Shown here: piece after piece, positions 32,191 through 44,738 of the stretch
Layout: the number at the start of each line of letters is the position of its first letter
Numbering within the stretch: position 1 is the first letter of the stretch
DNA from: Mycobacterium sp. ITM-2016-00316
GTDB taxonomy: Bacteria > Actinomycetota > Actinomycetes > Mycobacteriales > Mycobacteriaceae
NCBI RefSeq assembly: GCF_002968335.2
Contig: NZ_CP134398.1
Span: forward strand, 124,001-188,000
DNA length: 64,000 bases
Reading direction: 5' to 3'
Program-made: the position numbers and the translations under genes
Notes under the pieces: generated by a model
Database searches by the model: none
The model's input: the letters and a program-made list of their open reading frames with translations, nothing else
Told to the model about the DNA's origin: nothing

Positions 32191-34121
<1,931 letters not shown>

Positions 34122-34132
34122 AGCGCGCCGTC

Positions 34133-34399
34133 TCAGAGCTGATCGATCTTGATGAGACCGTCCTGTAGTGCACGCGCAACGAGTGCCGCCTTGGTGGGCG
34201 CCGGTCTGCCGGCCGCGGCGTACTTCGCACGGACGCGCTGCACCACCGTGCGAACCGTTGCCGCCGAGATGTGCAGGCGAAGCGCCACCGAATCCTTGTT
34301 GTCGTCGAGGATCCAGGCGATCAGCACCTGTCGCTCACGCAGCGTGAGGTCCGGGCGGCGCCGCGGTGAATCGGGGGGAACATGCTCTGGTGAGCTCAT
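34133..34399 (-). CDS. Stand-alone LuxR-type helix-turn-helix protein
   Basis: Protein of 88 residues that is essentially one LuxR/GerE DNA-binding domain: LTLRERQVLIAWILDDNKDSV, SAATVRTVVQRVRAKY and a last helix KAALVARALQDGL. There is no receiver or sensor domain. It lies 38 bases after the last glycosyltransferase gene of the minus-strand island and likely belongs to the same transcript, so it is a candidate regulator of that cluster. Confidence 0.78.
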   Translation of the reverse strand: MSSPEHVPPDSPRRRPDLTLRERQVLIAWILDDNKDSVALRLHISAATVRTVVQRVRAKYAAAGRPAPTKAALVARALQDGLIKIDQL

Positions 34400-34437
34400 G
34401 TCAGCCGACTCCCCTGCGCCCAGCTGTCGGTTGGCCC

Positions 34438-36039
34438 CTACGCTGTCTCGGCTCTGGCTTCCTCACGTTGACCCCCATCCCGTGCCGAAACAGTAACGGC
34501 ACTACGTGTTTGGTGACCGGTTCCAACCCCCCGCAGGCCGCCTACCGCTTCGTCGAGCGTGTGCAGGTCGTGACCGTGTTCCGTTTTGTCCCAGAAGTGA
34601 CGCATCCGGGGATTCGCAAGTTCGTAACACGCTTTGGCCAGCGACATCACCGTCAGCATGGGCCAGATGCCGGTCAGCACGACCAGCATGTACTTCACAG
34701 TACAGAAACCTTCATTTTTCGTCGCAGCAGCCACGTGTTGTAGGAAAAGCGCGAAATTGCCGAAAACCAGCAACAACACACCGAGGTAGAGCAAGGGTCC
34801 GGGGAACAGCTCTTCGATCACCGGAGAGCGGGTCGAGAAGTAGGCGATCGTGAGCGTCCAGGACAGTGCGCTCAGCAGAATCGACAGCGGGGTTCCGATC
34901 AGGAACAGGACGTAGACGAACCAGCGCAGGGGGCCCATCCGGAGCATGGTCTGGATGGGGTTTCGGGTGAAGATGAGTCCGGTCTGGATGTATCCCTTGA
35001 GCCAGCGCGACTTCTGGCCGATGAGTGCGCTCACCCGGGTGGTCGCAACCTCATTGGTGACACTGTCGAGCATCGCGATCTTGTAGCCGTGCAGTGCGAG
35101 TGCGCCGGCGAGATCGGCATCCTCGGTGACATTGAACATGTCCCAGATGCCGGCCCACTGCACCCCCGGCGGCTGTTGTCGGGGATCGATGCTGACGCGG
35201 GTGAGCAACTCCAGCCTGAAATGGTTCGACGTGCCGCCCAGCGGCGGAATCAGACCCAGCTTGGCCATACCCGGCAGCACCCAACAGAAGTGCACCAGAT
35301 ACTCCACCCACATCAGGCGCGACACCCAGCTGCTGGTCACGTTGGAGAACTCAAGTTGAGCCTGTAGGCACACCACTTGGGAATCAAGCGTGTCGTAGGC
35401 CCGAAACATGCCGACGGCCTTGAGCAGCTGGTCCGGCTCGGGGCGATCCTCGGCGTCGTAGATGACGCACAGTCGGCCCGCCCGCTCCTTTCTGGAAAGC
35501 GTGCGCGCATCCTCAATCGCCTTGTGCGCGCCGAAGTTCAGCGCGCGTTGCTTGCCGTAGGGCTTGACGTCCGGGATCTCGACGACCTCGAAGAAGTCTG
35601 GCAGTTCCAGTGCGTCGGCGGCGGCGCGGGTGCCGGGATCCCGATCGCGGGACTCCACGAGAAGCTTGACCTTGAGCCGGTGCTTCGGATACCGCAGCGC
35701 CGACATACCGCGCACCATCGGCTCGACCATGTTCGCTTCCCGGAACATCGGGATGAGGACGAGATAGTGCGGCAGATCGGCGTCGTCGACTTCCGGCACG
35801 TGGTAATCGGGGTATTGGTACCGCGTCGAGGCGTACCAGAGTCCCATCTTCAGCAGGATCACGAAGACCGCGAAGAAGATCAGCACCGTCGCCACGATGA
35901 CCTTGGCGAGGGTGAGCGGATTGAATACGAGCGCCGCCGCCGTGAGCGCCAGCAGGGCCAGTATGCAGGCCAACTGACCGGTGCTGATGACCGTCGCCGC
36001 GGTGTGCCGAATCGGGTTGGAGTTCTTCATCTTGAGCAT
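34438..36039 (-). CDS. Processive-type membrane glycosyltransferase, GT2 (cellulose synthase-like)
   Basis: Protein of 533 residues: two N-terminal membrane helices (about 15-65), a cytoplasmic GT2 domain (about 90-350) and several C-terminal helices (about 360-490). Motifs of membrane polysaccharide synthases are all present: DAED near residue 195, TEDADL near 310 and QKSRW at 342-346 (QxxRW). It should therefore polymerise or transfer sugar from a nucleotide sugar at the membrane. ATG 36039 starts 3 bases after the stop of the upstream GT gene. The C-terminal 40 residues are charged. The sugar is unknown. Confidence 0.82.
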   Translation of the reverse strand: MLKMKNSNPIRHTAATVISTGQLACILALLALTAAALVFNPLTLAKVIVATVLIFFAVFVILLKMGLWYASTRYQYPDYHVPEVDDADLPHYLVLIPMFREANMVEPMVRGMSALRYPKHRLKVKLLVESRDRDPGTRAAADALELPDFFEVVEIPDVKPYGKQRALNFGAHKAIEDARTLSRKERAGRLCVIYDAEDRPEPDQLLKAVGMFRAYDTLDSQVVCLQAQLEFSNVTSSWVSRLMWVEYLVHFCWVLPGMAKLGLIPPLGGTSNHFRLELLTRVSIDPRQQPPGVQWAGIWDMFNVTEDADLAGALALHGYKIAMLDSVTNEVATTRVSALIGQKSRWLKGYIQTGLIFTRNPIQTMLRMGPLRWFVYVLFLIGTPLSILLSALSWTLTIAYFSTRSPVIEELFPGPLLYLGVLLLVFGNFALFLQHVAAATKNEGFCTVKYMLVVLTGIWPMLTVMSLAKACYELANPRMRHFWDKTEHGHDLHTLDEAVGGLRGVGTGHQTRSAVTVSARDGGQREEARAETA

Positions 36040-36042
36040 CGG

Positions 36043-37605
36043 TCAGATTCCGTCCTTGTAGACGACGTACAGGTCATTGCTGAACACCTCGTGGTAACCG
36101 TCCAGCTTCGGAGTCCCCGACAGCTCGCGGTAGGTCTCGTCGGCGCCGTTGCCCCCGCGCATGACGATCCACCGGATCCGCTGGCCGGGTGGGTTGCTCA
36201 GTGCGGGATCCCACTTTTGATAGCTGCCCTCATAGACGTTGTTGGACAGCCCGATTCGGGCGTGGAACAGTATTGATTCATTGCCGAACGACTCGATGAG
36301 GATCACTCCACCGTCATAGTGCTCACGAAGGTAATCGCTGGTGGATACCGCGGTCTCGGGGAAACCGGTGCTGCCTTCCAGCGCGGTCACCACGTGGGTC
36401 GGTCCGCCGGGCAGCAGTGGTAGCAGTGTGCAGGCGATCGCCGCGCAGAGTCCGGCGATCGCGGGACGCCCGGGCAGCAGGCTGACCAGATAGGCCAGCA
36501 GAATCGCGGCAGGCACCACCATCAGCAGGCCAAAACGCACGTTGTACAGATCCTGGGTGAGCTGCTGGACGTGGAGCGGCCGCTGCCCGACGGTCAACGC
36601 GAAGACGAAGAACGGCGCGATGGTCAGCAAGCCCAGCACCGGCAGCACCTGCAGCGACCGGCGTCGCACGACCAGCACGACCACGCCGACGATCGCGGCC
36701 AAAACGACGGCGATGCCGAGGTTCTCCACCACTGCGTACCAATAGGTTTGGGCGGCCACCACCGGGCGACCCACCGCGACCTCACCCTCGCCGACCCACA
36801 GCGACGGCTTGGCATACTTACCGCTCTGAAAGTTGAGCGGATTACCGAATATCAGCAGATTCCAGCCCATCCAGAGCGCAATGGCCGCTCCGGCCAGAAA
36901 AGCGAAACCCAGCGTGATGCCGACGACTGCCTGCCGTCCGTACTGGCGCCACGCCACGAACGCCACGATGGCGCCGATGACGATGGTGAGCGGCCACGCC
37001 TCGTAGCGCGTCAGGCATGCCACGAAAGCCGCTATGGCCGTGGCGAACAGATACGGGTACTTGCGGGCGTGATCCTCGGCTTGGATCCACCGCAGCAGAT
37101 AGTAGGTGGCGGCAGCTATGGCGGCGAAGAGCAGCAGCTCGGTCATCGGCGTCGACTGCATGTAGAGCACATTGGGATTCAGCGCGAACACGGCAAGTCC
37201 GGCGAACGCCGGAATTTTGCCTTGTGTCAAAGCGAAACCGGTCTTGTATACATAGACGCATGCGATGACATAGCTGACCATGCTGACCGCCGCGCCCGCG
37301 AAACCGCTGTAGTAGAACGGCGTGATCCAAATCAGCGGTAGTGCGAGGATATGTGGGAGCGGCAACCACACCCCGCCCAGCTGCGCGAAACCCGCGGTCG
37401 GACTGTTCAACGTGCGGGCCGCGATCTGCAGGTGCGAGATCGAGTCCTTATAGCCCAGCGCCATACCCTTGCTGAAGAAGTAGGCGTAGGCGCCCAACGA
37501 CATGAGTGCCGCGCCGAGCGCCACCCACCGAACAGTGCGGTCTCGGGGGGCGGTCGGACTGTCGGCCCGGACTGCGGGTGCCTCGGTGCGGTCGGTGATG
37601 GTCAC
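36043..37605 (-). CDS. Polytopic GT-C-type glycosyltransferase
   Basis: Protein of 520 residues with about 10-12 membrane helices and a soluble C-terminal domain (about 405-520). An acidic residue, Asp54 (GYKDSISH), sits in the first extracytoplasmic loop, as expected for GT-C enzymes that use polyprenyl-phosphate sugars on the outer face of the membrane. The C-terminal part carries VYEGSYQKWDPAL and a final VVYKDG strand, resembling other actinobacterial membrane GTs. GTG 37605 overlaps the stop of the GtrA-GT2 gene (GTGA). Natural partner for the sugar-phosphate polyprenol made by that gene (inference). Confidence 0.75.
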   Translation of the reverse strand: MTITDRTEAPAVRADSPTAPRDRTVRWVALGAALMSLGAYAYFFSKGMALGYKDSISHLQIAARTLNSPTAGFAQLGGVWLPLPHILALPLIWITPFYYSGFAGAAVSMVSYVIACVYVYKTGFALTQGKIPAFAGLAVFALNPNVLYMQSTPMTELLLFAAIAAATYYLLRWIQAEDHARKYPYLFATAIAAFVACLTRYEAWPLTIVIGAIVAFVAWRQYGRQAVVGITLGFAFLAGAAIALWMGWNLLIFGNPLNFQSGKYAKPSLWVGEGEVAVGRPVVAAQTYWYAVVENLGIAVVLAAIVGVVVLVVRRRSLQVLPVLGLLTIAPFFVFALTVGQRPLHVQQLTQDLYNVRFGLLMVVPAAILLAYLVSLLPGRPAIAGLCAAIACTLLPLLPGGPTHVVTALEGSTGFPETAVSTSDYLREHYDGGVILIESFGNESILFHARIGLSNNVYEGSYQKWDPALSNPPGQRIRWIVMRGGNGADETYRELSGTPKLDGYHEVFSNDLYVVYKDGI

Positions 37606-38864
37606 GTCGCCTCCGAACCGATCAGCGGGAGAGCGGGTGCCGGTGCGATGGCCTCCGGAACGGCGACACGGTGGGTGGCCAGGTCACGCCGGACGGTGTA
37701 CAGGTCCATGAACGATCGGACGACGACCTTCGGTTGTAGCCCCGACTGGATGCCGCCGGCCCGCGGATAGTGCGGGACCGGTACCTCGACGAACCGGTGC
37801 CCCTGCTGGTGCAGGCGTGCCAACAGTTCGGGCGAGATCGCGGCGAAGTCGCTCTGCAGCTGGTCGGCGACGGCGGCGACGGCGGTCCGGTGCATCAGCT
37901 TGAATCCGCAATCCACATCGGCGGCAGTGAATTTGAGCGCCATCCGGCTCACCCCGTGCCAGCCGCGCCCGGCTAGGCGCCGGGCGAGGTTGTCGGCTCG
38001 TTTCACCCGGATTCCCAGAGCGACATCGACCTGATGTGAGAACGCGGCGACCATCAGCAGCGCCAGATCCCCTGGATTGAACTGGCCGTCGGAGTCGCAG
38101 TAGGCCACCCAGTCGTGGCCGGTGGCCAGTGCCGCGGTGAAACCCGACCTCAAGGCCCTGCCATAGCCGTGGTTGGTCTGGTGCGTCACGACCACCACGG
38201 GGTAGCTGCGCTGGATTTCCGCGAGCACCGAGGCGGTGTCATCGGAGGACCCGTCGTCGACGATGATCACCGACCGCTCGGTGATCGCGGCCCGGTCGAA
38301 GAAGTCGTAGGCCATGGCCACGACCTGCGGAAGATTGGAGGCCTCGTTGAAAGCGGGCATGAACAGCGCGACACTTGGCGAGGCGCCGGGATTGGCAAGC
38401 GGCAAAATGTGCATATCGGTTCTCTCCGGGATTCGAGTTGACTTCCTTTGTTGTTCCTTCTTGAAGACGAACAGGTGGTTCATCAAGAAAGTCCACATGG
38501 CGCTGGCGGCATTGGCGCACAGCATCGCCAGCCAGATCTGCAGGCCGGCCTCGGCCAGCAACCAGAACACGCTGGCATTCACCGCGACCACCGACAGCAG
38601 TGCGCTGGCGTTGAACTTCAGCCACTGCAGTGCGAGGCGTTCGGATTGGCGGCGATCCGCCCAGGTGAACGCCTGGCTGAGTGCGAAATTCAGCTGTGCC
38701 GAGATGATGAAGGCCAGCACGTCGGCGATGTAGAGGTGCAGGATGTTGTCCAGCAGAAGCAGCAGGATCAGCTGCACAAGGAAGCAACTGACCCCGACGA
38801 TGGCGAACCGCATGATTCTGGACGGCAGGGCAAGACCGTCTGACGTCTTGTCTTTCATGGTCAT
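37602..38864 (-). CDS. GtrA - GT2 (polyprenyl-phosphate sugar synthase) fusion
   Basis: Protein of 420 residues with two domains that are usually separate genes. Residues about 14-140 form a four-helix GtrA domain, linked to moving polyprenyl-phosphate sugars across the membrane. Residues about 165-400 are a DPM1-like GT2 domain (LFMPAFNEASNLP, DDGSSDDT, CDSDGQFN), which makes polyprenyl-phosphate hexose. ATG 38864 is chosen for GGGGGGA just upstream; GTG 38879 and ATG 38858 are alternatives. It lies 27 bases after the giant exported protein gene. Confidence 0.85.
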   Translation of the reverse strand: MTMKDKTSDGLALPSRIMRFAIVGVSCFLVQLILLLLLDNILHLYIADVLAFIISAQLNFALSQAFTWADRRQSERLALQWLKFNASALLSVVAVNASVFWLLAEAGLQIWLAMLCANAASAMWTFLMNHLFVFKKEQQRKSTRIPERTDMHILPLANPGASPSVALFMPAFNEASNLPQVVAMAYDFFDRAAITERSVIIVDDGSSDDTASVLAEIQRSYPVVVVTHQTNHGYGRALRSGFTAALATGHDWVAYCDSDGQFNPGDLALLMVAAFSHQVDVALGIRVKRADNLARRLAGRGWHGVSRMALKFTAADVDCGFKLMHRTAVAAVADQLQSDFAAISPELLARLHQQGHRFVEVPVPHYPRAGGIQSGLQPKVVVRSFMDLYTVRRDLATHRVAVPEAIAPAPALPLIGSEAT

Positions 38865-38891
38865 TCGATTTCCCCCCACGCTGTTCCGGAT

Positions 38892-41800
38892 TCAGACCAG
38901 GGCCGGGATGCCGGCGAGCGAGGTCACGGTGACGTTGTCGAACGTCGAGGTACTGAGTGCAGATCCGTTGTGTGAGGTCACGAAGAGGCCGACCTCACTG
39001 GTTGCTCCGAGCGCGACCGTCGTCGAACCGATCGAGGTCCAGTTGACGCCGTCGACGGACACCTGGCCGGTCACGACGTTGCCGGACCGGGTCAGCTTCA
39101 GCCAGGCATCGGGCACTGCGTAGGCCGCGGTACCGGTGTCCCCGGTGAAGTTGTGCTGGAACGTGATTCCGTGCTCGGGGGTCACCGCCAGGAGTGCGTA
39201 GTCGCTCCCCTGTGCCGTCGAGTGCTTGACCATCACGCCGGACTTCGCCCAGCCGTTGGTCCCGATCTCCTGAGCGGTGACCCTGGCGATGATCTCGCCG
39301 TCACCGGTCAGGGTCTGGTGCACGAAATGGAACTGGTCGGCGGTGCCCCAGATGTCATCGCCGGCACCGTTGAGGGTGAACGTTCCCCCGGCGTAGCTCG
39401 AGGACCCGGCTAGTTTGGGGGCGCCGATGTCACCGGCTGTCCAGGGCGCCGGCAGGCCCGCCGGTGCATTGACTGACTTGGTGAGGCTCACGTTGTCGAA
39501 AGTCGCAGTGCTCAGCTGGGAACCGTCATGGGCGGAGACGAACAATCCGACCAGCGCGGCACCGTCGAGATCGACCGTCGTGGAGCCAATCTCGGTCCAG
39601 ACGACACCGTCGACAGAGGTGTATCCGGTGAGCGTGTCCCCGAGTCGCTGCAGCTTGAGCCAGTTGGCGCCCGATGCCGTGGCCGGCTCGGCGATACTGG
39701 TGTCGAAATCGGCCTGCAGGTTGATGCCGTTTGCGGGAGTCACCGCCAGCAGCGCGTACGCCGAGCCCGCCGTTGCCGACTGCTTGATGATCAACCCCGC
39801 CTTCGCCCAGCCGTCGGAGGTGCCGGTGAACGACGTCACCCGCGCGATGATCTCGCCGTCGCCGGGCAGCGTCTGGTAGCTGAAGTGGAACTGGTCGGCG
39901 GTGCCCCAGATGTCGTCGCCGCCGCCCGTGAGGGTGTGGGTACTCCCCACGATCGTGGTGCTGCCCGCACGTACCGGTCCGCCGACGTCCTGGCTCGTCC
40001 ACTGCTTGTCCGACAGCACGCTGACCTGGTCGAAGGTGGTGGTGTTCAACGTGTCGAAGCTGTGCGACACCACCGCCAGACCCGCCGTGACTGAACTGTT
40101 CATGACCAGTGTCGTCTCTCCGACCTTGGTCCAGACGATGCCGTCGGCCGAGGTGTACCCCCTGAAGACGTCACCGACCCGCTCGAGTTTCAGCCAGGCG
40201 TTCGGGAACGTGTACGGCGCCGAGCCCGCGTCGCCCGCGAAGTTGCACTGAAAGCTGATCCCGTTCTCCGGGGTGACTGCCAGCAGCACGTACTTCGCCC
40301 CGGCTGCGGCGGACTCCTTGATCATGATGCCCGACTTCGCCCAGTCGTCGGTGTCGGTCTGCGAGGTCACCCGCGCGATAACCGTGCCGTCTCCGCTGAG
40401 TGTCTGATGGACATAGTGGAACTCGTCGGTGGGACCCCAGATGTCACCGCCTGCAGCGCGAATCGTGAAGACACCGTTGACGTAGGACGAATAACCCGCG
40501 ACTGATGGATGGCCGATGTCGACGCCCTGCCACGGTGCAGGCGCGGTGGTGAACGTGTCGTAGTTGATCGTGTACGTGGCGGCAGCGCCGGGGGTGACGA
40601 TGGTGTGGCTCTGTCCCAAACCGTCGGACCAGCCGTTGAAGACGAACTGCCCGCCCGGCACGTACTGGGGCGAGACCGCCGCGATGACCCGCTCGACTCC
40701 GACGACGGCCTGCTCGGTGTGTGAACCCTTGTAAGGGATTCCATCGATGGTGAACACCGCATCGGGATCGTTGGCCCTGATGGTCAACGCCACCAGGTTG
40801 GGCGTGATCTCGACCGAGCGTGAGGTCGACAGGCCGGTGCTGTCGGTGACCGTCAAGGTCAGGACGTAGGACGTGGTGTCGATGTTGTCGGCGCCGCGCG
40901 GGATGGTGATGCTGCCGGTCTTGCCCACGAGGTCGTCACGGAAGGGGTGCACATGGTCGGCGTGCTTGAAGACCACCGACCACGAGTAGGCACTGTCCGG
41001 CAACGTCCCGTCCTCGGCGTCGGTACCGATGCCGCTGAAGGTGATCACATCGCCCGCGTCGTACTTGGTGACGCTTGTGGGGGTGAGGATCTGGGCTGTC
41101 GGCGTAGTGCTTCCGACAACGATGCGCTGGGTGACCTGGCCGGTCTTGGCGCCGTCGCTGACTGTCAGCGTGACGGTATAGGCGCCGACGACGTTGTATG
41201 CCTTGGACGGGTTGGCGACCACGGCGGTGGTGCCGTCGCCGAAGTCCCAGGAGTAGGTCAGGGTGGTTCCGGGGTCGGGATCATTGGAGCGAGCCGAGGA
41301 GAAGTCGATGGCCAGCGGTGCAGGGCCGTTGGTCGGGGTGGCGTCGATGACGGCGACCGGTGCCCGGTTGCCGCCGGAGGGTGCGATGACGGACAGCTCG
41401 CCGGGGTAGATGTTCAACTGGTAGATGTTGCCGTCGGGACCCTGCGCCAGCTTCACGGCCGTACCGGCCTGATCATCGAACATTCGCTCACTGATGAAGC
41501 TGGTGTAGGTCGAGTCGAAGGTGAGTTCCTTGATCCAGCCCAATGTGTAGTCGGCGATGAAGACCTTGTTCTGGTACTCCGCACCGAAGGTGCTACCGGT
41601 GTAGGTCATGACGGCGGTGATCGAGCCGGCCTTGGCGGGCGCGGGAGTGTGTGCGTAGGTGTAGATGGGGTTCGCGAATGAGCAACCATCACATTGGCCT
41701 TCGGCGAGCGGCCAACCGTAGTTCGCCCCGCCGGTGATGACATTGAGTTCTTCCCACTGGTCGCCGCCGACATCGCCGGCGAGCATTTTGCCGTTCGGCG

Positions 41801-43415
41801 TGAACGTGAACCGGAAAGGGTTGCGCAGCCCGTAGGCCCAGATCTGCGGAATGGCACCCGGTGTGTTGACGAAGGGGTTATCTGCCGGTGCCGAGCCGTC
41901 GGGGTTCAGCCGGAGGATCTTGCCGTGGACATTGGACAGGTTCTGCGAGTTCGGATTGTTGGTGTTCATGCCCATCGCCCAGTACAGCTTGCCGTCCGGT
42001 CCGAACTGGACCTCGCCGCCGTGGTGGTAGACGTTGCCGGGCTGGTCGGATTCGATGAGCACCATCTCCGATGCGGGGTCGGCGTAGTGACCGACCACCG
42101 TGATGCGGGACAGTCGATCCCGGTTCTGTGCCGTGGTGTAGGAGACGTACAGATAGCCGTTGGTGGCGAAGTTGGGATCGACCGCGATGCCGAGCAGCCC
42201 GCGCTCCTCATCGGTGTCGGTCGGCAGCACCGCCAGGGTGATCAAGGGTTCGCCGTGCACGTGGCCGTCATGATAAAGCTTGATGGCGCCGCCCTTTTCG
42301 GCGATGAGGATGTCGCCGTTGGGCAGGAACCGGAAGTCGGTCGGCTGATCGAGTCCGGAGACCAGAGTGGTGCGCTCGAACTCGTCAGGCAGTCCGGTGC
42401 CATCTCCGGGATCGGCGCCGGGGTGGCCGGCGTTCGGGTTCTCGCCCGCAGGTGCGGCTGCCGGCACGGCGGCAAGTGGCGCCTCGATGCCGAGCATGTC
42501 GCTGAGGTTGCGGCGAACCCAGCCCAGCACCGCCCACAACAGGGGCGAGTTAGGAGGCATCGAGGTGTGGTTGGGTCCGATGAGCGGGGTCAGGATTGCG
42601 TCGAAAACGTTGAACGCCATCACTGCCACCGCACGGGGGACCGCCATGATCCTGGCGATCGGACTCGGCGTGGCCACCGACGGGGCCGTCGGTTCAGTCG
42701 TTGGGACCACAGGCGCAAGGGCCGACGAGCGCGGAGCTGTCGAGAGTGCGGCCTCGGCAGTGCTCGACGACAGTGACGCGGATCGCTGTGCCGTGCGGTT
42801 GCTGCTTACCGGCTCAACCGGATCGGGGTCGGATTCCGGTGGCTTGGTCGAATCATCGGCGCTGGTGGGGTGTTCGAGCTCGTCTTCGAGTTCACCGCCG
42901 TCCAGCGGCGCTTTGTCGCCGGAGACGTCATCAAGGTCTGTCACATCTGAGTCCGCCCCGCTGATCTCGGCGGAAACGAGGTCGGTATCGGTATCGGCGC
43001 CCGGGCCGGCAGACGGTACGGATCCGTCCGAGTCGGTGCCGCCCGATTCTGCTGTTGTGCTCGAAGGATGCTCCGCCTGGTTGGACGTCGAATCCTGGCT
43101 CGACGCGGGCGATGACTGCGATGAGTCCGAGGACGGCCCGGAGTCATCGGCGAGGGCCAGTACCGGATTTGTCGCGATCGCCCCGCCGATACCCAGCGCG
43201 ACAGCCAACGCACCCACCCGGCCGATGGACCGGGGGAATCCGAAAGCCACCGGGTGAAGCATTGGTGACGCCTTTGCCACTTTTGCCTTGCCGGCATGCC
43301 GGCTCCCGCCGGGGGCAATCACTCGGCGTTTGCCCATCGGGTCACCGACTGTGGCGCCCGCGTGGGTGCTTGGCGGTGTGGACCGCGTCGAACGCCGGCT
43401 CGATGTGTTCGCCAT
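38892..43415 (-). CDS. Giant exported multidomain protein: sugar dehydrogenase-like propeller, PKD, three C-terminal repeats
   Basis: Protein of 1507 residues. A basic N-terminus leads to a signal segment (about 66-89). Then follow a Ser/Asp/Glu/Pro-rich stretch (90-330), a sorbosone/glucose dehydrogenase-type propeller (about 345-675; LDQPTDFRFLPNG, GEVQFGPDGKLYWAMG, YGLRNPFRF, GGANYGWP), a PKD domain (about 681-770; YSWDFGDGT), a second Ig-like region (772-955) and three copies of a DUF1349-like carbohydrate-binding-type domain (about 958-1135, 1138-1310, 1321-1503). ATG 43415 has AGAGAG upstream. There is no C-terminal membrane anchor. First gene of the glycosyltransferase island. Function unknown; surface sugar binding is inferred. 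Confidence 0.78.
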   Translation of the reverse strand: MANTSSRRSTRSTPPSTHAGATVGDPMGKRRVIAPGGSRHAGKAKVAKASPMLHPVAFGFPRSIGRVGALAVALGIGGAIATNPVLALADDSGPSSDSSQSSPASSQDSTSNQAEHPSSTTAESGGTDSDGSVPSAGPGADTDTDLVSAEISGADSDVTDLDDVSGDKAPLDGGELEDELEHPTSADDSTKPPESDPDPVEPVSSNRTAQRSASLSSSTAEAALSTAPRSSALAPVVPTTEPTAPSVATPSPIARIMAVPRAVAVMAFNVFDAILTPLIGPNHTSMPPNSPLLWAVLGWVRRNLSDMLGIEAPLAAVPAAAPAGENPNAGHPGADPGDGTGLPDEFERTTLVSGLDQPTDFRFLPNGDILIAEKGGAIKLYHDGHVHGEPLITLAVLPTDTDEERGLLGIAVDPNFATNGYLYVSYTTAQNRDRLSRITVVGHYADPASEMVLIESDQPGNVYHHGGEVQFGPDGKLYWAMGMNTNNPNSQNLSNVHGKILRLNPDGSAPADNPFVNTPGAIPQIWAYGLRNPFRFTFTPNGKMLAGDVGGDQWEELNVITGGANYGWPLAEGQCDGCSFANPIYTYAHTPAPAKAGSITAVMTYTGSTFGAEYQNKVFIADYTLGWIKELTFDSTYTSFISERMFDDQAGTAVKLAQGPDGNIYQLNIYPGELSVIAPSGGNRAPVAVIDATPTNGPAPLAIDFSSARSNDPDPGTTLTYSWDFGDGTTAVVANPSKAYNVVGAYTVTLTVSDGAKTGQVTQRIVVGSTTPTAQILTPTSVTKYDAGDVITFSGIGTDAEDGTLPDSAYSWSVVFKHADHVHPFRDDLVGKTGSITIPRGADNIDTTSYVLTLTVTDSTGLSTSRSVEITPNLVALTIRANDPDAVFTIDGIPYKGSHTEQAVVGVERVIAAVSPQYVPGGQFVFNGWSDGLGQSHTIVTPGAAATYTINYDTFTTAPAPWQGVDIGHPSVAGYSSYVNGVFTIRAAGGDIWGPTDEFHYVHQTLSGDGTVIARVTSQTDTDDWAKSGIMIKESAAAGAKYVLLAVTPENGISFQCNFAGDAGSAPYTFPNAWLKLERVGDVFRGYTSADGIVWTKVGETTLVMNSSVTAGLAVVSHSFDTLNTTTFDQVSVLSDKQWTSQDVGGPVRAGSTTIVGSTHTLTGGGDDIWGTADQFHFSYQTLPGDGEIIARVTSFTGTSDGWAKAGLIIKQSATAGSAYALLAVTPANGINLQADFDTSIAEPATASGANWLKLQRLGDTLTGYTSVDGVVWTEIGSTTVDLDGAALVGLFVSAHDGSQLSTATFDNVSLTKSVNAPAGLPAPWTAGDIGAPKLAGSSSYAGGTFTLNGAGDDIWGTADQFHFVHQTLTGDGEIIARVTAQEIGTNGWAKSGVMVKHSTAQGSDYALLAVTPEHGITFQHNFTGDTGTAAYAVPDAWLKLTRSGNVVTGQVSVDGVNWTSIGSTTVALGATSEVGLFVTSHNGSALSTSTFDNVTVTSLAGIPALV
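38905..40545 (-). repeat. Three tandem ~540-bp coding repeats
   Basis: Three successive in-frame units, beginning near 40540, 40000 and 39450 on the minus strand, code for homologous domains sharing DDIWGTADQFHF, GEIIARVT, YALLAVTP and GLFVxSH-type blocks. The last two are most alike at the protein level, which suggests recent duplication. Confidence 0.8.
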
Positions 43416-43988
43416 ATCTGCATCTCTCTTCGCAGTTCTCGACGATCCGCGGTTAGGTCACCTGATTGAAAAAACTATGACACGGAAGATTCAGCAAAGC
43501 TTGATGAAGAGCCCTCGCGGCGAGCAGAAGCTTGCATGTGAGAACACTGCAGATGCCGTTGGCAATCGCCACCCAAAATTTTGATCTTGAGAGAAGCGCT
43601 GTTTAACAGTGCATATGTCACACGAATGGATTAGAACTTCCGCTAACGCGCTAGGTGTGGGAAGAAGTGCCAAGTTGGTGTCTGGATGTTGGAGCCGGTT
43701 GCGGCAAGCCGAGGCTCCCGCAAACAGCAAATCTCACCGGTTTTTGACGCGGGGGGCAGTTTGAAGGACTTTCGAAGCGCGTCATAAACTGACACTACTT
43801 AACTGAATGGCGGTTTCGATGACGTTGTAGGCCGCCGCTTGGCCTTTGGCTACTGCGGGACCAGTCGTCGGTATTGTTCCGGAGTCGTCCGATGCTGGGT
43901 CGGTCGAAGGAGCTTGAACGTAGTTGCTGCGGCGGCGGGCGCACGGCGCGATCCGAGAGGTGTCGGGGTGCTCCCTTACTCTTGCGTC
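43416..43988. other. 573-bp intergenic region, AT-richer than its surroundings
   Basis: No gene is supported here. Short AT-rich stretches (for example around 43571-43625) stand out from the GC-rich genome. A perfect palindrome CTGTTTAACAG lies at 43599-43609. The region must hold the promoter of the minus-strand island; no clear -35/-10 pair was identified for it. The right end carries TACTCT for the Rv0184-like gene. It also marks the boundary between island and conserved backbone. Confidence 0.5.
43977..43982 (+). promoter_or_regulatory. -10 hexamer TACTCT of the Rv0184-like gene
   Basis: TACTCT ends 6 bases before GTG 43989; no Shine-Dalgarno sequence is present, indicating a leaderless mRNA. 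Confidence 0.5.
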
Positions 43989-44738
43989 GTGGGTGAGGAC
44001 AAGATGCTGGCCCGGATCGCGGCCCTGCTGCGCCAGGCCGAGGGCACCGACAACGTCCATGAGGCCGAGGCGTTCATGACCGCGGCGCAACGGCTGGCCA
44101 CCGCGACATCGATCGACCTGGCAGTGGCCCGCGCGCATTCGGCGCAACGCACCGCGGCGCAGGCGCCGGTGCAGCGCACCATCACCATCGGTGAACCCGG
44201 CACCCGCGGGCTGCGCACCTACGTGCAACTGTTCGTGGTGATCGCGATGGCCAATGATGTGAAATGCGATGTGGCGTCCAATTCGACGTATGTGTACGCC
44301 TATGGCTTCGGCGAGGACATCGACGCCAGCCACGCGCTGTATGCCGGGCTGCTGGTGCAGATGGTGCGGGCATCCGACACCTATATCGCCACCGGGGCGC
44401 ATCGCCCGACCCCGACGATCACCGCCCGGCTCAACTTTCACCTGGCCTTCGGTGCACGGGTGGGCCAGCGGCTGTCCGAGGCACGTGACGAGGCCCGACG
44501 AGCGGCCACCGAGGACACCACGCGCGCGCCGGGAACCGCGCTTGCGTTGCGTAACAAGGATCTCGAACTCACATCGTTCTACCGTCAGTCGTCCGCGGCG
44601 CGGGGAACCTGGCGGGCCGCCAGCGCATCGGCCGGATACTCGTCGGCGGCGCGGCGCGCCGGGGACCGGGCCGGCCGGCGCGCCCGGCTGGGTCCGAGCC
44701 AGGAGATCTCCGGGGCGCGGGCACCGCTGGAGGGCTAG
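43989..44738 (+). CDS. DUF2786 family protein (Rv0184-like)
   Basis: Protein of 249 residues, the same length as Rv0184. The N-terminal DUF2786 segment (residues 1-40: MLARIAALLRQAEGT, EAEAFMTAAQRLA) is typical. The C-terminal third is Arg/Ala-rich. Function unknown; some DUF2786 proteins come with zinc or phage functions. GTG 43989 is chosen because of the TACTCT element; the frame is open to 43839. First of three overlapping genes. Confidence 0.82.
   Translation: MGEDKMLARIAALLRQAEGTDNVHEAEAFMTAAQRLATATSIDLAVARAHSAQRTAAQAPVQRTITIGEPGTRGLRTYVQLFVVIAMANDVKCDVASNSTYVYAYGFGEDIDASHALYAGLLVQMVRASDTYIATGAHRPTPTITARLNFHLAFGARVGQRLSEARDEARRAATEDTTRAPGTALALRNKDLELTSFYRQSSAARGTWRAASASAGYSSAARRAGDRAGRRARLGPSQEISGARAPLEG

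What the first reader, a model, noticed from the sequence alone, without database searches (positions are those of the whole stretch)
34133..43415. Self-contained glycan-assembly island with a giant exported protein
Five minus-strand genes with gaps of 38 bases or less: a 1507-residue exported protein, a GtrA-GT2 fusion (makes and flips polyprenyl-phosphate sugar), a GT-C enzyme (uses such sugar outside), a QxxRW-type GT2 synthase, and a lone LuxR-type regulator. It sits exactly between the Rv0183-like and Rv0184-like backbone genes, so it looks inserted. Hypothesis: the three enzymes build and attach a surface glycan, with the giant protein as glycosylated client or as glycan binder. All three enzyme classes being together with one exported protein and its regulator is an unusual, possibly undescribed system.
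Basis: partly seen in the sequence, partly recalled or inferred. Interest (0 to 1): 0.78.

Follow-up and report, generated by a model that had tools for sequence, protein, structure and literature searches.

The report
Glycan cassette shared with bacterial episymbionts

Summary
In detail: five co-directional minus-strand genes (34133-43415; junctions 12, -4, 3 and 38 bases) fill a ~9.8 kb insertion; 14 of 17 relatives show the flanking genes directly joined. The giant protein is a glucose/sorbosone-dehydrogenase-like propeller plus PKD plus three DUF1349 (CBM66/lectin-like) domains. And the cassette is not unique: GtrA, GtrB-type GT2, GT-C and QxxRW GT2 recur in the same order in Saccharibacteria, Sinomonas, Frankia, Glycomyces and Paractinoplanes; of 80 best GT-C loci 40 hold GtrB, GT-C and GT2 together, 22 of these with the giant's propeller, in different arrangements. 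The LuxR gene is not core (2 of 5 mycobacterial loci). It is rare (5 of 297 genomes of the genus; 8 of 392 of the Saccharibacteria class). Trees of GT-C, GT2 and propeller join mycobacteria to Saccharibacteria rather than to most other actinomycetes; the GtrB tree is unresolved. Base composition suggests traffic both ways. Best reading, inferred: the QxxRW GT2 makes and extrudes a polymer, GtrAB delivers polyprenyl-phosphate sugar, GT-C adds it outside, and the giant binds or processes the product. Protein glycosylation of the giant is unlikely to be the core job. New variant of a known kind.

The parts
38892..43415 (-). giant exported protein, 1507 aa: signal region, S/T/D/P-rich stalk, GSDH-like propeller, PKD, 3 DUF1349
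   Evidence: ORF; Pfam; hydropathy and relatives' N-termini
43152..43238 (-). hydrophobic signal region of the giant (residues ~60-88)
   Evidence: hydropathy peak 64-82; a second, equally weak peak lies at 256-274; no signal-peptide program was run
42426..43151 (-). low-complexity stalk (residues ~89-330), seen in mycobacterial versions, absent from the Saccharibacteria, Frankia and Paractinoplanes versions looked at
   Evidence: 14 N-termini compared
41415..42353 (-). GSDH-like beta-propeller domain (residues 355-667)
   Evidence: PF07995 E 3.1e-57; PDB relatives; H464, R531, N532, E555, D622 invariant in 158 rows
41121..41369 (-). PKD domain (residues 683-765)
   Evidence: PF18911 E 1.1e-17
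40008..40538 (-). DUF1349 unit 1 (residues 960-1136), lectin-like
   Evidence: PF07081, three stretches; model pLDDT 96.4; PDB matches 3mep, CBM66
39456..40007 (-). DUF1349 unit 2 (residues 1137-1320)
   Evidence: 46% identical to unit 1
38895..39449 (-). DUF1349 unit 3 (residues 1323-1507)
   Evidence: 56% identical to unit 1; PF07081 best stretch
37602..38879 (-). GtrA-like membrane domain (38463-38810) fused to GtrB/DPM1-like GT2 (37878-38363)
   Evidence: PF04138, PF00535; G-S of DDGS and D264 of the DxD invariant, D208 in 36 of 45 and D262 in 44 of 46 rows
36043..37605 (-). GT-C glycosyltransferase, 520 aa, one match in the genome
   Evidence: D54 in 70 of 70 and E156 in 71 of 71 rows; model matches ArnT, AftA, DPY19, OST; one genomic match at E <= 0.001
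34438..36039 (-). QxxRW-type membrane GT2, cellulose-synthase-like, 533 aa
   Evidence: PF13641; DAED, TED, QxxRW in all or nearly all of 66 rows; weak PDB match to BcsA
34133..34399 (-). 88-aa LuxR-type HTH protein, lineage-specific, not core
   Evidence: GerE 7.9e-6; clear match in JS60 only
34125..43957 (.). inserted segment, absent from the equivalent site in relatives
   Evidence: left border from relatives that keep the alpha/beta-hydrolase gene

Best explanation
A ~9.8 kb insertion carries four core genes that would together make, decorate and bind one cell-surface polysaccharide, and this cassette was likely exchanged between Saccharibacteria and their actinobacterial hosts. Proposed mechanism (inferred from families): the QxxRW GT2 polymerises a sugar from a nucleotide donor and extrudes the chain; the GtrB-type GT2 charges polyprenyl phosphate with a second sugar; the fused GtrA domain helps it cross the membrane; the GT-C enzyme transfers it outside onto the chain; the exported giant binds the product through three lectin-like domains while its propeller, probably not a standard PQQ enzyme, binds or modifies sugar ends. 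Shown by calls: domain content, conserved order, conserved catalytic motifs, insertion, patchy distribution, tree positions, base composition. Inferred: substrates, product, direction of each transfer, and any role in episymbiosis.
For: Domains and motifs. Same gene order in mycobacteria, Saccharibacteria, Sinomonas, Frankia and other actinomycetes; 40 of 80 loci hold GtrB, GT-C and GT2 in this order, 22 of them with the propeller. The propeller gene lies in three arrangements in 23 of 80 loci: upstream same strand 2, divergent 2, downstream 19. Trees: the five mycobacterial GT-C rows sit inside a 13-row set of Saccharibacteria/Patescibacteria plus Sinomonas and Catenulispora (98*), apart from 36 other actinomycetes (99*); GT2 joins mycobacteria with L005 and L010 at 100*. 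AU tests reject one actinomycete clade against six rows grouped as Saccharibacteria: GT2 p 4e-49, GT-C p 0.0017, GtrB p 0.035; they reject five of those rows as one clade: GT2 p 0.000125, GT-C p 0.040. GSDH tree: mycobacterial cassette rows follow branches holding the four Saccharibacteria-named rows. Composition: in the closed chromosome CP023991.1 the three enzyme regions have GC3 0.88-0.90 between rarA-like and metK genes at 0.59 and 0.51; in Sinomonas the trio has GC3 0.62-0.71 beside a GSDH gene at 0.83-0.87. TM7 are described as obligate episymbionts of Actinobacteria (PMC9040727, passages read).
Against: No product, substrate or phenotype is known. No giant was found (E <= 1e-60) in 32 of 49 GT-C-bearing genomes, among them those of L004-L007, L010 and L011, which carry the trio, so it is not obligatory. 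Sinomonas' GSDH belongs to another lineage than its trio, so the parts do not always travel together. The GtrB tree leaves mycobacteria, L005/L010 and the other actinomycetes in an unresolved fork. L006 is named only 'bacterium' and L010 only Patescibacteria. Some Saccharibacteria loci are MAG contigs. L007 points to transfer into Saccharibacteria, so no single direction explains all. The GT2's first acidic motif is unusual (E129, D134).
Confidence: 0.55

Rival explanations
1. Protein glycosylation island: GtrAB and GT-C glycosylate the giant's Ser/Thr-rich stalk, the giant being the client.
For: GT-C fold matches include protein glycosyltransferases (DPY19, OST, Pmt4); the mycobacterial giant has a stalk rich in S, A, P, D and T.
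Against: Giants of Saccharibacteria, Frankia and Paractinoplanes that I looked at start with a short signal directly before the propeller, without stalk; trio-bearing genomes with no giant detected exist; a QxxRW synthase is not needed for this (inference).
Confidence: 0.12
2. The trio decorates an existing envelope polymer (arabinogalactan or lipoglycan), as PpgS/Rv3632/Rv3779 add galactosamine in M. tuberculosis; the GT2 and the giant act separately.
For: PpgS is the best NCBIfam hit of the GtrB part, though far below its cut-off (56 of 370 bits); mycobacterial precedent (PMC9671496, passages read).
Against: The same trio with its own QxxRW GT2 occurs in Saccharibacteria and many non-mycobacterial actinomycetes; the GT2 is the most constant neighbour of GT-C (downstream in 53 of 80, upstream in 8, none within 2.5 kb in 19).
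Confidence: 0.2
3. The giant is a PQQ-dependent sugar dehydrogenase used for oxidation of environmental sugars, placed by chance next to a glycan locus.
For: PF07995 E 3.1e-57; the His at the catalytic position (role recalled) is conserved in 158 of 158 rows; several database names say PQQ-dependent.
Against: Where solved relatives 7cdy and 2g8s carry an R-x-R pair the giant has T652 and V654; no Arg at either position in 158 rows. No PqqE over cut-off in the genome (no control genome passed the cut-off either). Linkage to the trio in several arrangements.
Confidence: 0.1
4. Ordinary patchy actinomycete EPS locus; the Saccharibacteria link is due to MAG contamination or tree artefacts.
For: MAG bins can hold foreign contigs; trees are quick and some support is marginal; the GtrB tree is unresolved.
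Against: L007 is a closed Saccharibacteria chromosome and L005 a 674-kb contig; L005, L008, L010, L011 cassette genes have GC 0.47-0.53, unlike mycobacteria; three genes give the same grouping.
Confidence: 0.08

Closest known systems
Three-component extracytoplasmic glycosylation (Gtr: GtrA, GtrB, Gtr GT-C; polyprenyl-P-sugar synthase, flippase, GT-C) (PMC11127046, passages read)
   Same: GtrB-type synthase, GtrA-type membrane protein and a GT-C enzyme encoded together
   Different: GtrA and GtrB fused here; the module carries its own QxxRW GT2 and often an exported propeller-lectin protein; acceptor polymer unknown
PpgS/Rv3632/Rv3779 galactosamine decoration of mycobacterial arabinogalactan (PMC9671496, passages read)
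   Same: polyprenyl-P-sugar synthase, small membrane partner and an acceptor transferase (GT-C class recalled) in the same bacterial order
   Different: no synthase or exported giant described there; our GtrB part scores 56 bits against a PpgS cut-off of 370
CslA-GlxA cellulose synthase complex of Streptomyces (PMC11022532, abstract read)
   Same: a membrane polysaccharide synthase (CslA; QxxRW class recalled) paired with an extracellular sugar-oxidoreductase-like protein
   Different: GlxA is a radical copper oxidase; no GtrAB/GT-C in the described active core; here the partner is GSDH-PKD-DUF1349
gsf cluster of Actinoplanes missouriensis (PMC13390465, abstract and sections 9, 14, 15 and part 1 of 17 read)
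   Same: GtrA-dependent surface glycosylation cluster in an actinomycete, needed for normal sporangium size
   Different: different gene list (UDP-sugar dehydrogenase, stealth protein, acyltransferase, methyltransferase) and no propeller-lectin protein named; its authors call the GtrB-like transferase not GT-C, but AMIS_70420 (11 helices, no domain predicted) could be one, which I did not test
Soluble GSDH / aldose dehydrogenases (PDB 2ism, 3a9g, 3das, 7cdy, 2g8s)
   Same: GSDH-type propeller, conserved His, Arg-Asn pair
   Different: R-x-R pair of 7cdy and 2g8s replaced by T-x-V; fused to PKD and lectin-like domains

Membership tests
Three-component Gtr glycosylation system | GtrB-type polyprenyl-P-sugar synthase with DxD-type motifs | tested here: met
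   PF00535; DxD: D262 in 44 of 46, D264 in 46 of 46 rows
Three-component Gtr glycosylation system | GtrA/DPMS membrane domain | tested here: met
   PF04138 79.8 bits, cut-off 26.1
Three-component Gtr glycosylation system | GT-C fold transferase with an acidic residue in the first extracellular loop | tested here: met
   Model (pLDDT 78.6) matches DPY19, ALG12, OST, AftA, ArnT at TMq 0.46-0.59; D54 in 70 of 70 rows; loop placement inferred, model weak there
Three-component Gtr glycosylation system | transfer of a lipid-linked sugar to a surface glycan | not testable with these tools
   needs biochemistry
Processive QxxRW GT2 polysaccharide synthases | D, DxD-type, TED and QxxRW motifs with membrane helices | tested here: met
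   DAED, TED, QxxRW in all or nearly all of 66 rows; first motif deviates (E129, D134 invariant); 5 hydropathy peaks
Processive QxxRW GT2 polysaccharide synthases | curated cellulose synthase identity (CelA/BcsA) | tested here: not met
   TIGR03030 47.5 of 699.1 bits; PDB match to BcsA only E 0.0027
PQQ-dependent soluble glucose/aldose dehydrogenase | GSDH propeller with catalytic His (role recalled) | tested here: met
   PF07995; H464 in 158 of 158 rows
PQQ-dependent soluble glucose/aldose dehydrogenase | Arg pair that binds PQQ (role recalled; position from solved relatives) | tested here: not met
   T652/V654; no Arg at either in 158 rows
CslA-GlxA type complex | physical complex of GT2 and extracellular oxidase | not testable with these tools
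   needs pull-down
Mobile genetic element (phage, plasmid) | flanking repeats, or occurrence on phages or plasmids | tested here: not met
   no shared 9-mer between 34060-34250 and 43400-44050; no phage match; one 11.9-Mb record in the plasmid set

The most novel reading that the evidence does not exclude
The cassette is a piece of surface identity traded between Saccharibacteria and the actinobacteria they grow on: parasite and host lineages make the same decorated glycan and the same propeller-lectin protein that binds it, so the glycan-lectin pair acts as the adhesive or the recognition badge of the partnership (docking, or exclusion of rival episymbionts and phages). In mycobacteria the acquired propeller then multiplied into the widespread family of secreted GSDH-PKD proteins.
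Probability: 0.2. Interest if true: 0.87.

Novelty: new variant of a known kind. Interest (0 to 1): 0.62.

Why it matters
If right, it gives a defined four-gene unit for surface-polymer synthesis plus extracellular decoration in both Actinobacteria and the tiny Saccharibacteria, and a concrete molecular handle on how episymbiont and host surfaces are matched, an open question. It also makes the database label PQQ-dependent sugar dehydrogenase doubtful for a large family of secreted actinobacterial proteins, and suggests that mycobacterial envelope genes can trace to exchange with parasitic bacteria.

Tried and rejected
Regulator as part of the system: rejected, a clear match in JS60 only besides the window; one further weak hit (L054, E 0.010, 34%) lies away from the trio. 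Phage or plasmid origin: no phage match, one 11.9-Mb record in the plasmid collection; no 9-mer shared between the two end stretches compared. Same insertion site in other carriers: rejected; none of eight flanking genes was found in the fetched stretches of L002, L003, L004 or L145. Sequence search of the GT-C in the PDB: nothing useful. PqqE in the genome: two matches far below cut-off; no control genome passed the cut-off either, so sensitivity is untested. The gsf cluster of Actinoplanes missouriensis as the same system: its listed genes differ, though I did not compare sequences. My first count of GT2 neighbours (54 downstream) included L061, where the GT2 lies upstream; the recount is 53. 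Literature searches for the cassette or for its transfer between Saccharibacteria and mycobacteria listed no paper whose title or abstract start describes it; this library holds only open-licence PMC papers. One protein search was left unused.
Full report
WHAT IS THERE. Junctions are 12 bases, a 4-base overlap, 3 bases and 38 bases, so the giant, GtrA-GT2, GT-C and GT2 genes look like one transcription unit (inference). The giant (1507 aa) has weak hydrophobic peaks at residues 64-82 and 256-274 (the first is the likely signal), a low-complexity stalk, a GSDH propeller (PF07995, 3.1e-57), a PKD domain (1.1e-17) and three DUF1349 stretches. The second protein is GtrA_DPMS_TM fused to Glycos_transf_2. 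The third has no Pfam match, though many listed relatives carry PF13231. The fourth is a QxxRW GT2. The fifth is an 88-aa GerE protein.

THE INSERTION. I searched 30 relatives plus the own genome for the Rv0184-like protein; 20 of 31 matched: the own genome, 17 of 18 other genomes of the same genus, and 2 of the same order. Flanking genes and DNA comparison: in 14 of the 17 the next backbone gene lies 26-138 bases from the Rv0184-like gene. In 7 of these that gene is the alpha/beta-hydrolase gene, with homology ending at window 34063-34124; in the other 7 no such gene is seen and the Rv0183-like gene is the neighbour (ending at 33050-33063). In 2 more, 1.15-1.17 kb of other DNA lies between; 1 ends at a contig edge. 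On the right homology resumes at 43957-43995. None of these genomes has the GT-C at E <= 1e-40. Rv0183, Rv0184 and Rv0185 are names recalled, except that NCBIfam TIGR04338 (HEXXH_Rv0185) confirms the third. No 9-mer is shared between the two end stretches compared. Carriers JS60 (L002), OAS707 (L003), RYN_129 (L004) and G168 (L145) hold the cassette elsewhere: none of eight flanking genes was found in the stretches fetched.

DISTRIBUTION. GT-C at E <= 1e-40 occurs in 5 of 297 genomes of the genus, own genome included, and, by profile, in 8 of 392 genomes of the class of L008's genome (three of the eight are weaker, E 1e-87 to 1e-137). At E <= 1e-100 it occurs in 1 of 396 genomes of the order of Sinomonas, Sinomonas itself, and in 7 of 397 of the own order, own genome included. 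A scan of genome contigs found 427 relatives, of which the best 80 were kept. Among those 80 the GT2 lies downstream on the same strand within 2.5 kb in 53, only upstream in 8 and not within 2.5 kb in 19; a GtrB-type GT2 lies upstream in 40, and these 40 all have the GT2 downstream; a GSDH domain is in the locus in 23, 22 of them with the full trio. The 23 fall into 2 upstream on the same strand (mycobacteria), 2 divergent (a Saccharibacterium and a Chloroflexi bin) and 19 downstream (other actinomycetes). Contig ends cut some loci, and the set favours close relatives. By eye, 15 or more contig lengths coincide between the GT-C and giant protein lists. In a whole-genome search of 49 of the 80 loci's genomes, 17 hold GSDH-PKD at E <= 1e-60 and 32 do not; among the latter are L004, L005, L006, L007, L010 and L011, which hold the enzyme trio; several are incomplete bins. 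So the enzymes are the core and the giant a frequent partner. The LuxR gene is found in JS60 (84% over 74 aa) but not in L003, L004 or L145. GtrA and GtrB are fused in the window, L002, L004 and L011 and separate in the other 28 of 31 loci scored.

ENZYMES. The GT2 keeps DAED, TED and QxxRW in all or nearly all of 66 rows; the first acidic motif is unusual, with invariant E129 and D134. It scores far below the curated cellulose synthase model (47.5 of 699.1 bits) and matches BcsA weakly. The GT-C keeps D54 in 70 of 70 and E156 in 71 of 71 rows. Its AlphaFold model (mean pLDDT 78.6, under 50 at residues 51-54) has as its first 20 PDB matches GT-C enzymes or complexes that hold one: DPY19, ALG12, OST, AftA, ArnT (E 9e-6 to 4e-4; rmsd 7-16). 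Their use of polyprenyl- or dolichyl-linked donors is recalled. In the GtrB part the DxD and the G-S of DDGS are near invariant, D208 is Asn in 8 of 45 rows; its sugar cannot be told.

THE GIANT. Solved relatives of the propeller are soluble aldose/glucose dehydrogenases and hedgehog-interacting protein. In 158 rows (8 of them duplicate loci) H464, R531, N532, G550, E555 and D622 are invariant, but where 7cdy and 2g8s carry an R-x-R pair the family has mostly T652 and V654; none of 158 rows has Arg at either. That this pair binds PQQ is recalled. The name PQQ-dependent is therefore not supported, while a conserved site is. DUF1349 unit 1 was modelled at pLDDT 96.4; its best PDB matches are 3mep (ECA2234), 3o12, GH43 enzymes, CBM66 and L-type lectins, so glycan binding is likely. 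The stalk is seen in the window, in JS60's ORF and in P0125, P0133 and P0138; P0123 and P0137 are recorded with later starts that lack most of it; the Saccharibacteria, Frankia and Paractinoplanes versions I looked at start with a short signal directly before the propeller.

SACCHARIBACTERIA. Relatives of both GT-C and propeller named as Candidatus Saccharibacteria/Saccharimonadales appear in the protein lists; most rows there have no name. The six rows that I group as Saccharibacteria are L005, L007, L008 and L011 (so named), L010 (named Patescibacteria; its genome turned up in the class search) and L006 (named only bacterium, 0.6 Mb). GT-C tree, 71 rows: five mycobacterial rows (100*) next to L005 (95*), inside 13 rows (98*) of these plus Sinomonas and Catenulispora; 36 other actinomycetes separate (99*). 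A 135-row tree places a second mycobacterial lineage (M. phlei) with L005's branch (fork support 94). GT2 tree: mycobacteria with L005 and L010 at 100*. GtrB tree: mycobacteria, L005/L010 and 28 other actinomycetes leave one unresolved fork, which does not help. GSDH tree, 150 rows, midpoint root: mycobacterial rows (98*) follow branches that hold the four Saccharibacteria-named rows; 72 rows (99*), mostly mycobacterial where named and mostly without DUF1349 in the precomputed lists, arise among the mycobacterial cassette rows, by forks of only 88-93; their linkage to any trio was not tested. AU tests reject actinomycetes as one clade against the six rows (GT2 4e-49, GT-C 0.0017; GtrB 0.035) and reject five of the rows (without L007) as one clade (GT2 0.000125, GT-C 0.040). 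Limits: quick searches, long branches, groups named after seeing trees.

BASE COMPOSITION. In the closed chromosome CP023991.1 (L007) the three enzyme regions have GC3 0.88-0.90 between a rarA-like gene (0.59) and metK (0.51); a serine recombinase gene lies beyond metK. This points to entry from a high-GC donor. In Sinomonas (L009) the trio has GC3 0.62-0.71 and the neighbouring GSDH gene 0.83-0.87, which points to a lower-GC donor for the trio. L005, L006, L008, L010 and L011 have cassette GC within 0.06 of their flanks (0.47-0.54). In the window the island has GC 0.637 against 0.664 for the whole window. Together: exchange both ways, not one donor (inference). All known TM7 are described as obligate episymbionts of Actinobacteria (PMC9040727, passages), so cell contact offers a route.

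MECHANISM. The most economical model combines a synthase-made polymer with three-component decoration (PMC11127046, passages) and a surface partner, recalling CslA-GlxA, where a synthase works with a radical copper oxidase (PMC11022532, abstract). Protein glycosylation of the giant, decoration of arabinogalactan (PMC9671496, passages) and a purely nutritional dehydrogenase fit less well, for reasons given under rivals.

VERDICT. The cassette is a new variant of a known kind. Its sharing with Saccharibacteria is the part that a specialist would not expect; no listing in my searches showed a paper on it.

Noticed in passing
L007:9000-16157 (CP023991.1): High-GC trio inserted between rarA-like and metK genes in a closed Saccharibacteria chromosome, with a serine recombinase gene beyond metK.
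   Followed up: partly
L009:6333-14431 (Sinomonas): Two large ORFs follow the trio: a GSDH protein of another lineage and a second 1482-aa ORF with DUF1349-like repeats.
   Followed up: partly
G000:C1:4302355-4304088 (L142): The own genome holds a second GSDH-PKD gene (56% identical); it falls in a 72-row group that arises among the mycobacterial cassette propellers in the GSDH tree, with modest fork support.
   Followed up: partly
P0057 (M. phlei): A GT-C 49% identical to the window's that branches apart from the main mycobacterial group, with Saccharibacteria L005's branch: a possible second acquisition.
   Followed up: partly
window 32955-34121: Alpha/beta-hydrolase-like gene with a weak lipoprotein signal left of the island, seen at this place in some relatives and not in others, so the site is variable even without the cassette.
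   Followed up: no
L067:95-19503: A bin from an uncultured bacterium with three GT-C relatives and two GT2 genes in one 20-kb stretch.
   Followed up: no
L055-L081: Among the lower-ranked of the 80 loci (mostly Patescibacteria and Chloroflexi) the GT-C often has the GT2 upstream or further away and no giant in the locus, so the GT-C family is wider than the cassette.
   Followed up: no
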